Part shown: piece by piece, positions 1,865 to 6,010 of the stretch
Numbering within the stretch: position 1 is the first letter of the stretch
Layout of the letters: each line of letters opens with the position of its first letter
Source: Hymenobacter cellulosivorans
Lineage (GTDB): Bacteria > Bacteroidota > Bacteroidia > Cytophagales > Hymenobacteraceae
Assembly (NCBI RefSeq): GCF_022919135.1
Contig: NZ_CP095049.1
Location: 4,220,501 to 4,284,500 of the forward strand
Length of the DNA stretch: 64,000 bases
Direction: 5' to 3'
Made by a program: the position numbers and the translations under genes
The notes under the pieces: generated by a model
What the model saw: the letters and a program-made list of their open reading frames with translations, nothing else
What the model was told of the DNA's origin: nothing
Database searches by the model: none

Positions 1865-3613
1865 ATGTCAACTACTCCTGCTTCTGCTTCCGCTCACCCG
1901 TCCGCGGCCCTGCCCCAGCTGCCCAAAGCGCCTTCCGGCATCGATGGGCTGGATGAAATAACGGAGGGCGGTCTGCCCCTGGGCCGGCCCACCCTGATCT
2001 GCGGCAGCGCCGGCTGCGGCAAAACCCTGATGGGTATCGAGTTTCTGGTGCGCGGCATCCAGGACTACCACGAGCCCGGCGTGCTGATGACCTTTGAGGA
2101 GTCGGCGGCTGAGCTGGCGGCCAACGTCACCTCCCTGGGCTTTGATCTGGTGCAGCTGCAGGCCGACAAAAAGCTGCGCATCGACCAGGTCCACGTCGAC
2201 CGGTCCGAAATTGAGGAAACCGGCGAGTACGACCTCGAAGGCCTTTTCATCCGCCTGGGCCACGCCATCGACTCTATCGGGGCCAAGCGCGTGGTGCTCG
2301 ACACGATTGAGGCTTTGTTTTCGGGTTTTCCCAACGAAGGCGTGCTGCGCTCGGAAATCCGCCGCCTGTTTCGCTGGCTCAAGGATAAGGGCGTCACGAC
2401 CATCATTACCGCCGAGCGGGGCGAGGGCACGCTCACCCGCCAGGGCCTGGAAGAGTACGTGTCCGACTGCGTGATTCTGCTCGACAACCGCGTGATTGAC
2501 CAGATAACCACCCGGCGCCTGCGCATTGTGAAGTACCGCGGCAGCACCCACGGCACCAACGAGTACCCGTACCTGATTATGGAATCTGGTATTTCGGTGC
2601 TGCCCGTCACCTCGCTGCAGCTCAACCACGAGGTGTCGGACGTAATCGTGTCGTCGGGCATTCCGGCCCTGGACGAAATGTTTGGCCGCCGCGGCTTTTA
2701 CCAGGGCAGTAGCGTGCTGGTAACCGGCACGGCCGGCACGGCCAAAACCACGCTGGCCGCTACGTTTGCCGCCGAGGTATGCCGCAACCACGGCCGCTGC
2801 CTGTTTCTGGCCTTCGAGGAGTCGCCCCAGCAGCTGGTGCGCAACATGCAATCCGTCAGCATCGACCTGGCGCCTTTCGTGGCCAGCGGGCAGCTGCGCA
2901 TCGAGGCCACCCGGCCCACGCTCAACGGCCTGGAGCGCCACCTGGTGAGCATTCACAAGCTGATCAAGGACTTTAAGCCCGCGGCCGTTATCATTGACCC
3001 CATCAGCAACCTGATTTCGGTAGGCAACCTGAGCGAGGTCAAGAGCATGCTCATCCGCCTCATCGACTTTCTGAAAGTCAACGGCATCACCGCCCTGTTT
3101 ACCTCTCTTATCAGTGGGCGCAACATCCAGCAGGAAATGACCGAGGAAGGCGTTTCGTCGCTGGTTGATACCTGGGTGAGCGTGCGTGATTTGGAGGGCA
3201 TGGGTGAGCGGAACCGCGGCATCAGCATTCTGAAGTCGCGCGGCATGAGCCATTCCAATAAAGTGCGCGAGTTTTTGGTTACCGAGCAGGGCATTCAGCT
3301 GCTCGACGTCGTTATTGGGCCCACGGGCATTGTCACGGGCGCCGGCCGCCTGACCCAGCAGCTGCAGGAGCAAGCTCAACTGCTGGCCGCCCAGCAGGAA
3401 CTGGAGCGTAAAGACCGGGAACTGGAGCGCCGCCGCCGCGTCCTGGAAGCCACCATCGGCAACCTGCGCACCGAGTTTGAGTCGGTGGAGGAGGAGCTGC
3501 GCCAGATCAACCACGAGGAGCAGGCCCGGCAGCAGGCCCTGGCCCAGGGCCGGGCCCAGTTTAGCCAGCCCCAGCCTCTGCAGCCCTCCGGCTCCCCATC
3601 ACAATCTTCATAA
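1865..3613 (+). CDS. kaiC: KaiC circadian-clock-type ATPase/autokinase
   Basis: This RecA-like double-domain protein has 582 residues. Domain CI has Walker A GSAGCGKT (residues 47-54) and the catalytic pair E78-E79. Domain CII has Walker A GTAGTAKT (288-295) and the pair E318-E319. The phosphosite segment reads TEEGVSSLVDT, giving T426, S431 and S432; cyanobacterial KaiC has T426, S431 and T432, so the numbering is collinear. After the CII core the protein has a charged coiled coil (about 490-560) and a Gln/Pro/Ser-rich tail in place of the KaiA-binding tail. I chose the ATG at 1865 because the 26 upstream in-frame residues look non-coding. It is followed by two kaiB genes and a kinase. No kaiA is visible. 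Confidence 0.93.
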   Translation: MSTTPASASAHPSAALPQLPKAPSGIDGLDEITEGGLPLGRPTLICGSAGCGKTLMGIEFLVRGIQDYHEPGVLMTFEESAAELAANVTSLGFDLVQLQADKKLRIDQVHVDRSEIEETGEYDLEGLFIRLGHAIDSIGAKRVVLDTIEALFSGFPNEGVLRSEIRRLFRWLKDKGVTTIITAERGEGTLTRQGLEEYVSDCVILLDNRVIDQITTRRLRIVKYRGSTHGTNEYPYLIMESGISVLPVTSLQLNHEVSDVIVSSGIPALDEMFGRRGFYQGSSVLVTGTAGTAKTTLAATFAAEVCRNHGRCLFLAFEESPQQLVRNMQSVSIDLAPFVASGQLRIEATRPTLNGLERHLVSIHKLIKDFKPAAVIIDPISNLISVGNLSEVKSMLIRLIDFLKVNGITALFTSLISGRNIQQEMTEEGVSSLVDTWVSVRDLEGMGERNRGISILKSRGMSHSNKVREFLVTEQGIQLLDVVIGPTGIVTGAGRLTQQLQEQAQLLAAQQELERKDRELERRRRVLEATIGNLRTEFESVEEELRQINHEEQARQQALAQGRAQFSQPQPLQPSGSPSQSS

Positions 3614-3620
3614 GTCCGTA

Positions 3621-3953: not shown

Positions 3954-4289
3954 ATGGAAGTAGAAGAAGGGGCGGAGGCAACTACCGGGGCCGAGTACGT
4001 GTTGCACCTGTATATTACGGGAGCTACTCCTAACTCGACGCGGGCCGTACGCAACATCAAGGATATCTGTGAGCAGTACCTACCGGGCCGCTACGAGTTG
4101 CTGATCATCGACATCTACCAGCAACCCGAACTGGCCCAGCACGAGCAGCTCATCGGCGCCCCTACGCTCATCAAGCGCAGCCCGGGCTTGGTGCGCCGCC
4201 TCGTCGGCGACCTTTCGGACCGGGCGCGGGTGCTGCGGGCCTTGGGCATTACTCCGCCCGCGGCGCAAGACCAAACCACGAGCCAATGA
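3954..4289 (+). CDS. Second, diverged KaiB-like protein
   Basis: This 111-residue protein is a KaiB paralogue of its neighbour. It shares LHLYITGATPNSTRAVRNI, APTLIKRSP and RRLVGDLSDRARVLRALGI but is less canonical (IDIYQQPELAQHEQLIG in the centre). An acidic N-terminal tail (MEVEEGAEATTG) precedes the fold. It starts 3 bp after kaiB and its stop overlaps the kinase start by 4 bp, indicating translational coupling. It may compete with KaiB for KaiC or act on the adjacent kinase, but that is inference. Confidence 0.88.
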   Translation: MEVEEGAEATTGAEYVLHLYITGATPNSTRAVRNIKDICEQYLPGRYELLIIDIYQQPELAQHEQLIGAPTLIKRSPGLVRRLVGDLSDRARVLRALGITPPAAQDQTTSQ

Positions 4290-6010
4290 GGGAGGCGGCA
4301 GGGAAAACGGCGGCCGAGCTAGCCCGCGAGAATGAGGAGCTGCGCTACCGCCTTGAGGAAGCCGAAGAGCTGATTGAGGCCGTACGTACCGGCGCCGTCG
4401 ATGCCCTGGCCATTCAGAGCCCGGAAGGGCCGCGCATCTTCACCCTGGAGGGCGCCGACCATGGCTACCGCACCCTGATTGAGCAGATGAACGAGGGGGC
4501 GTTGCTGCTAAGCGACGACGGAACCATCCTCTACGGCAATGCCTGCCTGGCCAGCTGGTTGGGGCGGGCCCTGGAAGAAGTTATCGGCGGCAAGCTCGAC
4601 GCCTTTATCCCTCTGGACTTTCACGGCTACTGGCAAACGCTGCTGGGCAGCGCCTGGGACGAAGGCAAGGGCAAGGGCGAACTGCCGCTGCGCAGTCAGG
4701 ATGGCTCGTTGCGGCCCCTGTCGCTGTCGATGAACATGCTGACGTTTCATGAAACGCCGGTGCTGGCCGTTATTGCCACCGACTTATCGGCCCAGCAGGC
4801 CGTTAAAGCCATTCAGGCCCGCGTCACGGAGCAGAATGCCGTTATTGCCCGCAAAAACGAGGAGCTTACCCGCCAGCAGCAGGCCCGGCAGGCCATTGAG
4901 CGGGTGGCGGCCGAAGCCAGCCGCATGCTGGAAGGCATCCCGCAGATTGCCTGGACCACCGACGCCCACGGCGTGACCACCTACCTCAACCACCGCTGGT
5001 TTGACTTCACCGGGGCCGGTAGCTTCGTGGATTTGGGCAGCCAGTGGCAGGAGCACATTTTTCCGGCCGATGCCGAGCCCAGCAACGCCCGCTGGGCCGA
5101 GTGCCTGCGCACCGGGCAGGCTTTCGAAATCGAGTACCGCTTCCGCAACCACGCTGGCGAGTACCGCTGGATGCTGGGCCGGGCCTTGCCCTCCCGCAAC
5201 GAGCGGGGCGAGATTGTGCAGTGGATTGGCACCTTCACCGATATTCACGAGCACAAGCTGGCCCTGGAGCGCATCGACCAGGCCCAGCGCGAGCTGCAGG
5301 TCAACAACGAGCAGCTGACCCGGGCCAACGTGGACCTGGACAACTTCATCTACACCGCTTCCCACGACCTGAAGGCCCCCATCAGCAACATTGAAGGCCT
5401 GCTGCAGGCCCTGCTGCTGGAGCTGCCCGCCCACACGGCCCAGGAGGCCGAGCAGGTACCCCAGATTCTGCGGATGATGCAGGCTTCGGTGGACCGCTTC
5501 AAGCGCACCATCGAGCACCTCACCGAAGTGACCAAGCTGCAGAAGGAGCATGGCTCTACGGCCGCCACCGTGGACCTGAAACGGCTCATTCACGAAGTCC
5601 GGCTCGATCTGCAGCCCCTGGTGCAGGCCGCCGAAGCCACCGTGGACATTTCGGTCGGCACCTGCCCCACGATTTCCTTTTCGGAGAAAAACCTGCGCAG
5701 TATTATTTACAACCTGCTCAGCAACGCCCTGAAGTACCGCAGCCCCGAACGGCCGCCCCGGGTGCGGGTCAGCTGCGCCGTGGAGGCTGGCTACGCCGTG
5801 CTGCGGGTGGAAGACAATGGCCTGGGTTTGAACCTGAAACACGATGGTAAAAAGCTGTTTGCCATGTTTCAGCGCCTGCACGACCACGTCGAGGGCACCG
5901 GCATCGGGCTCTACATGGTCAAGAAAATTGTGGAAAACGCCGGCGGGCGGATTGAGGTAGCCAGCCAGATGGGCGTGGGCTCCACATTCAGCGTTTATTT
6001 TAGGCGCTAA
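4286..6010 (+). CDS. PAS-domain sensor histidine kinase of the kai operon
   Basis: The 574-residue soluble kinase has an N-terminal coiled coil (NEELRYRLEEAEELIEAV), a first PAS domain (about 60-160), a second PAS/PAC domain (about 210-330, ending in EIVQWIGTFTDIHEHK), a HisKA helix with the phosphoacceptor H360 in TASHDLKAPISNIEG, and an ATPase domain with NLLSNALKYRSPE, EDNGLGL and GTGIGLYMVKKI. No membrane segment is visible. ATGA overlap with the second kaiB suggests it is the output kinase of this Kai system, analogous in position to SasA although it lacks SasA's KaiB-like N-terminus. No response regulator is adjacent. Confidence 0.88.
   Translation: MREAAGKTAAELARENEELRYRLEEAEELIEAVRTGAVDALAIQSPEGPRIFTLEGADHGYRTLIEQMNEGALLLSDDGTILYGNACLASWLGRALEEVIGGKLDAFIPLDFHGYWQTLLGSAWDEGKGKGELPLRSQDGSLRPLSLSMNMLTFHETPVLAVIATDLSAQQAVKAIQARVTEQNAVIARKNEELTRQQQARQAIERVAAEASRMLEGIPQIAWTTDAHGVTTYLNHRWFDFTGAGSFVDLGSQWQEHIFPADAEPSNARWAECLRTGQAFEIEYRFRNHAGEYRWMLGRALPSRNERGEIVQWIGTFTDIHEHKLALERIDQAQRELQVNNEQLTRANVDLDNFIYTASHDLKAPISNIEGLLQALLLELPAHTAQEAEQVPQILRMMQASVDRFKRTIEHLTEVTKLQKEHGSTAATVDLKRLIHEVRLDLQPLVQAAEATVDISVGTCPTISFSEKNLRSIIYNLLSNALKYRSPERPPRVRVSCAVEAGYAVLRVEDNGLGLNLKHDGKKLFAMFQRLHDHVEGTGIGLYMVKKIVENAGGRIEVASQMGVGSTFSVYFRR

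What the first reader, a model, noticed from the sequence alone, without database searches (positions are those of the whole stretch)
1865..6010. KaiC-KaiB-KaiB-kinase operon in a heterotroph, with KaiC phosphosite numbering kept
KaiC keeps E78/E79, E318/E319, K294 and the segment T426, S431, S432 at the residue numbers of cyanobacterial KaiC, with Thr432 changed to Ser. KaiB is near canonical. A second diverged KaiB and a PAS kinase with ATGA coupling complete the operon; KaiA is absent. This looks like a timer or hourglass with its own output kinase rather than a lone KaiC homologue.
Basis: partly seen in the sequence, partly recalled or inferred. Interest (0 to 1): 0.75.

Follow-up and report, generated by a model that had tools for sequence, protein, structure and literature searches.

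The report
KaiC timer operon with paired KaiBs
A non-photosynthetic bacterium carries a clock-like gene set related to a known hourglass timer, with a second, anciently diverged KaiB copy predicted to rest in the opposite shape and an output kinase whose front end, in the genomes sampled, turns up right behind such timer genes.

Summary
The four genes are there: kaiC 1865-3613, kaiB-a 3621-3950, kaiB-b 3954-4289, PAS histidine kinase 4286-6010 (ATGA overlap), in a Hymenobacter genome without a KaiA match. KaiC goes with KaiC2 of Rhodobacter sphaeroides (E 6e-178, through its C-terminal coiled coil; Ser-Ser sites), a published KaiA-free hourglass; kaiC-kaiB-PAS/HK operons are also known. Three things appear new. 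(1) The two KaiBs are ancient paralogues kept in one order in several phyla. (2) With equal 11-sequence alignments AlphaFold2 gives kaiB-a the ground fold and kaiB-b the fold-switched fold; structure searches separate cleanly. No readable Hymenobacter kaiB-b keeps the Gly88 that all kaiB-a rows keep, but other kaiB-a-invariant sites are lost too. (3) Residues 11-77 of the kinase form a module without a Pfam match up to residue 60; all 52 strong matches in 987 genomes of four phyla lie behind a kaiB, while the output part is exchanged (HisKA, HWE, HK-REC, GGDEF-EAL, sigma-54 activator). Best reading: KaiC2 hourglass with switchable and pre-switched KaiB and a plug-in output. Timing, binding and folds are unmeasured.

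The parts
1865..3613 (+). kaiC, KaiC2 type, 582 aa, two RecA-like rings CI and CII
   Evidence: NF006799 732.7 bits (cut-off 408) and PF06745 twice; best solved relative R. sphaeroides KaiC 8dba, E 6.4e-178, 596 bits, against about 324 bits for S. elongatus entries such as 1tf7 and 1u9i (organism recalled)
2096..2101 (+). CI catalytic Glu pair E78/E79
   Evidence: conserved in 73 of 73 readable KaiC rows
2744..2746 (+). CII Walker A Lys K294
   Evidence: 74 of 74
2816..2821 (+). CII catalytic Glu pair E318/E319
   Evidence: 74 of 74
3155..3160 (+). phosphosite pair S431/S432 (Ser-Ser, KaiC2 signature)
   Evidence: aligns with the SS of R. sphaeroides KaiC (S413/S414 in PMC10076222)
3332..3559 (+). 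C-terminal extension of KaiC, coiled-coil helix by similarity (approximate limits)
   Evidence: phmmer alignment to full-length R. sphaeroides KaiC continues to residue 560; 70-109 aa follow position 490 in 73 of 74 aligned KaiCs
3621..3950 (+). kaiB-a, 109 aa, predicted ground-state fold
   Evidence: groups with R. sphaeroides KaiB and a cyanobacterial KaiB1
3954..4289 (+). kaiB-b, 111 aa, predicted fold-switched (thioredoxin-like) fold
   Evidence: outside the kaiB-a side of the tree; lacks Gly88, Asp90 and the third switching proline
4286..6010 (+). PAS histidine kinase, 574 aa, ATGA overlap with kaiB-b
   Evidence: PAS x2, HisKA, HATPase_c; sequence
4316..4516 (+). N-terminal module of the kinase, residues 11-77 (helix with EAEETLxAIRxGEVDAL-like motif, then GADxxYR)
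   Evidence: alignment A3; 52 of 52 strong matches lie downstream of a kaiB
5339..6004 (+). HisKA and HATPase_c output part, the part exchanged in other phyla

Best explanation
This is a KaiC2-type, KaiA-free hourglass module. KaiC autophosphorylates on S431/S432 without KaiA because its C-terminal coiled coil pairs two hexamers, and it is reset by the ATP/ADP ratio (inferred from R. sphaeroides). KaiB-a rests in the ground fold and binds the CI ring slowly after switching (inferred). KaiB-b is an old paralogue that in Bacteroidota has lost ground-state determinants and rests in the fold-switched, KaiC-binding, thioredoxin-like form (predicted), so it would bind KaiC without the slow switching step and compete with or prime KaiB-a, as the SasA thioredoxin domain competes with KaiB in cyanobacteria. 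The fourth protein reads the state of the complex (inferred) through an N-terminal helix plus PAS module that in the genome survey occurs behind kaiB (shown), and passes it to an exchangeable output, here a histidine kinase whose response regulator would lie elsewhere in the genome (inferred).
For: KaiC matches R. sphaeroides KaiC through the coil with Ser-Ser sites; that protein is a published hourglass (PMC10076222: abstract, passages and Discussion read). No KaiA. Gene order held in 68 of 74 loci although the upstream neighbour holA is found in only 4 of 56 Hymenobacter loci (at least 3 of the 56 have no DNA upstream of kaiC), so the cassette stays together while its surroundings change. 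All KaiB-a rows lie on one side of a branch with SH-aLRT 98 and all KaiB-b rows outside it, across phyla, once the mis-ordered L108 pair is swapped. AlphaFold2 with 11 sequences each: KaiB-b strands and helices in the order E H E H E E H, and the first 9 structure matches are all KaiBs in the switched state (for 5n8y taken from its being a KaiCBA complex); KaiB-a E H E H H E, and the first 17 are all ground-state crystals. Gly88 kept in 101 of 101 distinct KaiB-a cores, in 0 of 66 readable KaiB-b cores of Hymenobacter; Ile68 of KaiB-a is charged in 12 of 15 KaiB-b cores of other Bacteroidota (E 6, K 3, R 3); changes at these positions shift KaiB to the switched fold in the laboratory (PMC10808063, PMC8059507, PMC12618002: passages). 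N-module: 28 of 28 strong matches in 395 Bacteroidota genomes sit 33-290 nt after a KaiB domain, and none in a genome without KaiB; 24 of 24 strong matches in 592 genomes of three further phyla also follow a KaiB, within about 570 nt. Output exchange.
Against: No biochemistry. The two AlphaFold2 models have only moderate confidence (mean pLDDT 70.5 and 65.5), and no protein of measured fold was modelled as a control. KaiB-b differs from KaiB-a at many sites: 15 of 52 KaiB-a-invariant columns are lost in Hymenobacter KaiB-b, 6 of them among the 22 in the half that does not switch, so loss at I68, V83, G84 and D86 is only partly special. PMC5520375 (passage) notes Gly88 as highly conserved in KaiB2 proteins. 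P58 and P65 are kept in all KaiB-b rows, and mutating either abolishes the switched state in R. sphaeroides (PMC11551320, passage), so KaiB-b may still switch. Outside Bacteroidota KaiB-b keeps Gly88 in 22 of 25 cores, so the locked reading covers Bacteroidota only. 13 of 52 strong N-module genes follow a single KaiB, so KaiB-b is not needed for the output coupling; 9 of 37 Bacteroidota KaiB genomes have no N-module match (two of these nine KaiB matches are contig-end or partial pieces). The module profile was itself built from Kai-linked genes, and the genomes of 4 of the 52 matches supplied rows of it. 17 of 101 sampled Hymenobacter genomes have no KaiB over the cut-off.
Confidence: 0.5

Rival explanations
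1. Split SasA: KaiB-b is the dedicated KaiC-reading adaptor of the kinase, the two doing together what SasA does in one chain.
For: KaiB-b is adjacent to and overlaps the kinase gene; its model matches the SasA N-domain bound to CI (6x61) after fold-switched KaiBs; weak SasA-family score 26.9 bits, against 22.0 for KaiB-a.
Against: 13 of 52 strong N-module genes follow a single KaiB, so the kinase-side module does not need KaiB-b; the one SasA in the tree joins other rows on a very long branch. No dedicated search for KaiB-b-kinase fusions was made.
Confidence: 0.2
2. Two metamorphic KaiBs with different switching rates: KaiB-b still switches, only faster or slower, giving a two-step timer.
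For: P58 and P65 kept in all 108 distinct KaiB-b cores; outside Bacteroidota KaiB-b keeps P67 in 25 of 25 and Gly88 in 22 of 25 cores.
Against: In Hymenobacter 47 of 68 KaiB-b cores lack P67 and none of 66 readable keeps Gly88; model in the switched fold.
Confidence: 0.2
3. Not a timer: an ATP/ADP or redox sensing relay in which KaiC only gates the kinase, as proposed for stress roles of other non-cyanobacterial Kai proteins.
For: R. sphaeroides KaiBC needs an ATP/ADP change to reset (PMC10076222, Discussion); a Legionella KaiB crystallised in the switched state was linked to stress, not rhythms (statement in PMC10808063, passage). The exchangeable outputs fit general signalling.
Against: The catalytic and phosphorylation residues and the C-terminal extension are kept in nearly all rows.
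Confidence: 0.2
4. KaiB-b is a divergent bystander that no longer binds KaiC.
For: Many KaiB-a-invariant sites are lost in it.
Against: Present beside kaiB-a in 20 of 37 Bacteroidota KaiB genomes, all 20 with the N-module gene directly behind it; 24 of 52 KaiB-a-invariant columns kept in Hymenobacter KaiB-b.
Confidence: 0.08

Closest known systems
KaiBC hourglass of Rhodobacter (Cereibacter) sphaeroides, kaiC-kaiB-HWE kinase on plasmid pB (8DBA, 8FWI, 8FWJ; PMC10076222)
   Same: KaiC2 with Ser-Ser sites and C-terminal coiled coil, no KaiA, KaiB of the a-type, downstream PAS kinase starting with the same helix motif
   Different: One KaiB only; HWE instead of HisKA kinase; the second half of its N-module is diverged
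kaiC-kaiB-PAS/HK operon of Rhodopseudomonas palustris (PMC4794148)
   Same: KaiA-free operon with PAS histidine kinase (passages only)
   Different: No second KaiB is named in the passages read; sequences not compared here
KaiB2/KaiC2 of Bacteroidetes (PMC5520375)
   Same: That survey noted Bacteroidetes encoding only KaiB2/KaiC2-like proteins (passage)
   Different: The passages read mention neither tandem KaiB nor an output module
Fold-switched KaiBs: Thermosynechococcus KaiB-TV4 (8UBH) and Legionella Lpp1115 (4KUN)
   Same: The KaiB-b model matches both among the first 8
   Different: 34% and 32% identity; KaiB-b sits in a KaiC2 operon beside a KaiB predicted in the ground state
SasA of cyanobacteria
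   Same: KaiB-like thioredoxin domain reading KaiC and driving a histidine kinase (recalled; 6x61 match)
   Different: Domain and kinase on separate chains here; N-module also occurs without KaiB-b
KaiC-Nt_HK pair of Ramlibacter (PMC3164672)
   Same: A conserved kinase N-terminus dedicated to KaiC was proposed there (passages)
   Different: That group lacks kaiB and has SY/TY/SF sites; sequences not compared here

Membership tests
KaiC2 subgroup (KaiC with C-terminal extension) | two tandem KaiC/RecA domains with both Walker and Glu-pair sites | tested here: met
KaiC2 subgroup (KaiC with C-terminal extension) | two serine phosphorylation sites | tested here: met
   S431/S432; S431 in 74 and S432 in 73 of 74 rows
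KaiC2 subgroup (KaiC with C-terminal extension) | C-terminal extension of about 50 residues | tested here: met
   alignment to R. sphaeroides KaiC continues to residue 560
KaiBC hourglass | KaiB present, KaiA absent | tested here: met
KaiBC hourglass | dodecamer, KaiA-free autophosphorylation, reset by ATP/ADP | not testable with these tools
   needs biochemistry
circadian KaiABC oscillator | KaiA | tested here: not met
   no PF07688 match in the own genome, control rings
fold-switched KaiB class (for KaiB-b) | thioredoxin-like topology preferred | tested here: inconclusive
   predicted with mean pLDDT 70.5; structure matches list fold-switched KaiBs first; not measured
fold-switched KaiB class (for KaiB-b) | change at ground-state determinants (Gly88, Asp90, Val83, Ile68) | tested here: met
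   window protein has A, G, R, V there (columns one lower than the paper's numbers); but other sites are lost too
SasA | KaiB-like domain fused to histidine kinase | tested here: not met
   separate ORFs overlapping by ATGA

The most novel reading that the evidence does not exclude
In Bacteroidota the two folds of the metamorphic protein KaiB have been divided between two genes: a ground-state KaiB-a and a permanently fold-switched KaiB-b, kept side by side in a KaiC2 timer. Its output runs through a Kai-only adapter module onto which different phyla have plugged kinases, c-di-GMP enzymes or a transcription activator.
Probability: 0.35. Interest if true: 0.8.

Novelty: new variant of a known kind. 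Interest (0 to 1): 0.6.

Why it matters
How KaiBC systems outside cyanobacteria pass on their signal is, as far as my searches show, open. A module that in four sampled phyla occurs behind kaiB gives a direct handle: it names the candidate output protein in each genome, whatever its catalytic part. A pair of KaiB paralogues predicted to rest in opposite folds in one operon would be a natural case of a fold-switching protein resolved by gene duplication, and lets the role of slow fold switching in KaiA-free timers be tested by deleting one copy.

Tried and rejected
Numbering as a sign of conserved clock function: rejected, since R. sphaeroides has the same sites at 413/414. Recent tandem duplication of kaiB: rejected by the tree. 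Strong claim that loss of switching determinants alone proves a locked fold: weakened by the control. Conserved leader or operator: an 11-bp inverted repeat at 1743-1753 / 1792-1802 was not found in the 7 relatives checked. No Rfam or tRNA match in the window. Conserved neighbourhood (holA upstream): only 4 of 56 Hymenobacter loci. A laid copy of the genome for a response-regulator census was not available, so the kinase's partner was not sought. Plasmid records with DNA similarity to the operon: 39, of which 21 Hymenobacter and 9 Cereibacter; in the 20 listed, the 12 non-Hymenobacter records match kaiC-kaiB and the 8 Hymenobacter records only the kinase part.

Literature searches for a second KaiB, the operon in Bacteroidetes/Hymenobacter, or the module; none of the listings or passages I saw describes tandem KaiB in a KaiC2 operon or the N-module. 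The library lacks most subscription papers; one Legionella paper and one review asked for were not held.

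Full report
Observation. The finding is real. In the window kaiC (1865-3613, 582 aa), kaiB-a (3621-3950), kaiB-b (3954-4289) and a PAS histidine kinase (4286-6010) run in one direction with gaps of 7 and 3 nt and an ATGA overlap. The window lies in a 6.1 Mb single-contig genome; the nearest named relatives are Hymenobacter. In that genome PF07689 finds only these two KaiBs over its cut-off, PF06745 finds only this KaiC at high score (234 and 142 bits; the next match has 35 bits), and PF07688 (KaiA) nothing.

KaiC. The closest solved sequences are the three R. sphaeroides KaiC sequences (575-596 bits); the next has 372.5 bits (8zn5), and S. elongatus entries (organism recalled) about 324 bits. 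The alignment continues through the C-terminal coiled coil. According to PMC10076222 (abstract, passages and Discussion read) a large clade, predominantly KaiC2, has a C-terminal tail about 50 residues longer and two serine sites; the tail joins two hexamers, serves as the primitive regulatory part later superseded by KaiA, and the system is an hourglass reset by ATP/ADP. The window protein meets both sequence marks. Of 74 KaiC rows (72 loci, window, R. sphaeroides) 74 keep S431, 73 keep S432, 64 keep T426. So the KaiC part is a new member of a known kind.

The cassette. Searching named genomes with KaiB-b gave 74 loci; 68 show KaiC, KaiB, KaiB and a fourth gene in this order. Exceptions: L058 and L112 (contig ends), L093 (no KaiB-a detected), L105, L109, L110 (single KaiB). 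The loci span Hymenobacteraceae, Chitinophagaceae, Deltaproteobacteria, Desulfobacteraceae, Lamprocystis, a planctomycete and Cylindrospermum (titles). The sample is biased towards KaiB-b. In an even draw of 395 Bacteroidota genomes, 37 have KaiB over the cut-off and 20 of these have a tandem pair. In the genus 84 of 101 have KaiB over the cut-off. The gene upstream in the window (holA) is found in only 4 of 56 Hymenobacter loci (L048, L058 and L090 of the 56 have no DNA upstream of kaiC): the cassette keeps together while its surroundings change.

Two KaiBs. In a tree of 215 KaiB rows (quick IQ-TREE, few columns, many weak forks) the KaiB-a copies of all phyla sampled, with R. sphaeroides KaiB and a cyanobacterial KaiB1, lie on one side of a branch with SH-aLRT 98, and the KaiB-b copies outside it; the one pair that crosses, L108, was put in the wrong order by my script. 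This is an old split, not a recent duplication. The raw labels need 8 changes each on the tree against about 70 in shuffles; forks among the KaiB-b of different phyla are unresolved, so that KaiB-b is one clade is not shown. With the published local-alignment approach (ten closest sequences; PMC10808063, passages) the window KaiB-b was modelled as E H E H E E H, mean pLDDT 70.5, and KaiB-a as E H E H H E, mean pLDDT 65.5. [quoted passage not shown] Foldseek on PDB: for KaiB-b the first 9 matches are KaiBs from switched forms or KaiC complexes, then the SasA N-domain in complex with KaiC CI; ground-state crystals begin at rank 12. For KaiB-a the first 17 are ground-state crystals and the first switched one is rank 18.

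Switch residues. Numbers are those of R. sphaeroides KaiB; G84 and D86 are Gly88 and Asp90 of S. elongatus. Counts are of distinct cores. In KaiB-a, P58, P65, P67 and G84 are kept in 101 of 101. In Hymenobacter KaiB-b P67 is lost in 47 of 68, G84 in 66 of 66 readable, D86 in 64 of 66 readable. In other Bacteroidota KaiB-b (15) G84 is kept in 8, P67 in 15, but position 68 is E, K or R in 12. In other phyla (25) G84 is kept in 22, P67 in 25, and position 68 is Leu in 20. Mutations at these sites push KaiB to the switched fold: G89A/D91R of T. elongatus (PMC8059507, passage), G88A and D90R (PMC12618002, passage), I68R/V83D/N84A of R. sphaeroides, 86% switched (PMC10808063, passage). Against over-reading: 15 of 52 columns invariant in Hymenobacter KaiB-a are lost in KaiB-b, 6 of 22 in the half that does not change fold and 9 of 30 in the rest; I68, V83, G84 and D86 are among the 15, which by my own arithmetic has a chance of about 0.005 if lost columns fell at random, but sites are not independent and were chosen from the literature after the fact. 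In the sample from other phyla no KaiB-a-invariant column (of 27) is lost. P58 and P65 remain in all 108 KaiB-b cores, and PMC11551320 (passages) reports that mutating P58 or P65 removes the switched state and that all three prolines are kept in 474 of 487 KaiBs. PMC5520375 (passage) calls Gly88 highly conserved in KaiB2. I therefore hold the locked-fold reading as likely (about 0.6) in Bacteroidota and unlikely elsewhere.

The output protein. Residues 11-77 of the kinase (ELxxExEELRxRLxEAEETLxAIRxGEVDALVV ... TLxGADxxYRxxIExMxEGA) and the following PAS are shared by the fourth genes of these loci and, in the helix, by the R. sphaeroides HWE kinase; a simple motif search missed 3 of 75 (L093, L109, L110). 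Pfam gives no match to residues 1-60 at E 0.001. In the own genome the first 185 residues have one further match, weak and starting at residue 58 (E 6.5e-4). Searching the module (profile A3, 12 rows, all from Kai-linked genes; at most 15-31 candidates scored per genome): Bacteroidota 395 genomes, 28 strong matches (E 5e-18 or better) and 2 weak ones; all 28 lie 33-290 nt after a KaiB domain on the same strand, in 28 of the 37 KaiB genomes and in none of the 358 others; all 20 tandem-KaiB genomes have it; the 2 weak ones have no KaiB near (Fisher p 2e-35, which ignores kinship). Pseudomonadota 200 genomes: 10 matches in 9 genomes, 6 strong, all with KaiB and KaiC upstream; of the 4 weaker, 3 have a full or partial KaiB match near and one (L201) none. 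Cyanobacteria 194: 10 strong, all after a KaiB pair. Phylum of the Desulfobacteraceae genome G496, 198: 8 strong in 7 genomes, all after KaiB; 2 weak, one beside KaiB and one beside KaiC only. Together 52 of 52 strong matches, up to about 570 nt behind the KaiB domain; 39 follow a KaiB pair and 13 a single KaiB. Four of the 52 (own genome, G492, G493, G496) lie in genomes that gave rows to the profile. The catalytic part varies among the 14 proteins scanned: HisKA kinase (window, L049, L096, L102, L105, L106, L109, L111), hybrid kinase with receiver (L094, L100), HWE kinase (L114), GGDEF-EAL (L104; also L110, which lacks the helix motif), sigma-54 activator with HTH (L107). The simplest reading is a docking and sensing module for the KaiBC state with exchangeable output.

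Known and new. kaiC-kaiB-PAS/HK operons (PMC4794148, passages), kinase or GGDEF/EAL genes next to kaiBC (PMC3164672, passages), KaiC2 hourglass chemistry and Bacteroidetes KaiB2/KaiC2 (PMC5520375, passage) are in print. In the seven searches named I found no account of the tandem ancient KaiB pair in KaiC2 operons, of their opposite predicted folds, or of a Kai-linked N-terminal module of this kind; the library is partial.

Shown: gene order, residues, tree split, co-location of the module, domain exchange. Predicted: folds. Inferred: autophosphorylation, dodecamer, binding roles, timing, signal to a distant response regulator.

Noticed in passing
window 1743-1753 and 1792-1802: 11-bp perfect inverted repeat (GGTTGAGCTTG / CAAGCTCAACC) about 60-120 bp upstream of the kaiC ATG; not seen in the 7 relatives checked.
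   Followed up: partly
L111, L142, L149, L156, L203 (Cylindrospermum, G492): A cyanobacterium holding a SasA-like protein, a canonical-looking KaiB, a further KaiB-like copy and in addition the KaiC2-type operon with paired KaiBs and module kinase; nine further cyanobacterial genomes of 194 also have the paired KaiBs plus module.
   Followed up: partly
L215 and L222 (G1081): Two N-module genes in a row in one genome, with two KaiBs before the first and a third between them.
   Followed up: no
L104 and L107: The Kai-linked module fused to GGDEF-EAL (Lamprocystis) and to a sigma-54 activator with HTH (Desulfobacteraceae): timers that may drive c-di-GMP or transcription directly.
   Followed up: partly
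L189 and L190 (G332, G229): Single KaiB-a, then about 245 nt whose open frames do not resemble each other, then the module kinase: looks like loss of kaiB-b.
   Followed up: partly
L114 (Cereibacter sphaeroides plasmid pB): The characterised R. sphaeroides kaiC-kaiB-HWE kinase operon lies on a plasmid.
   Followed up: no
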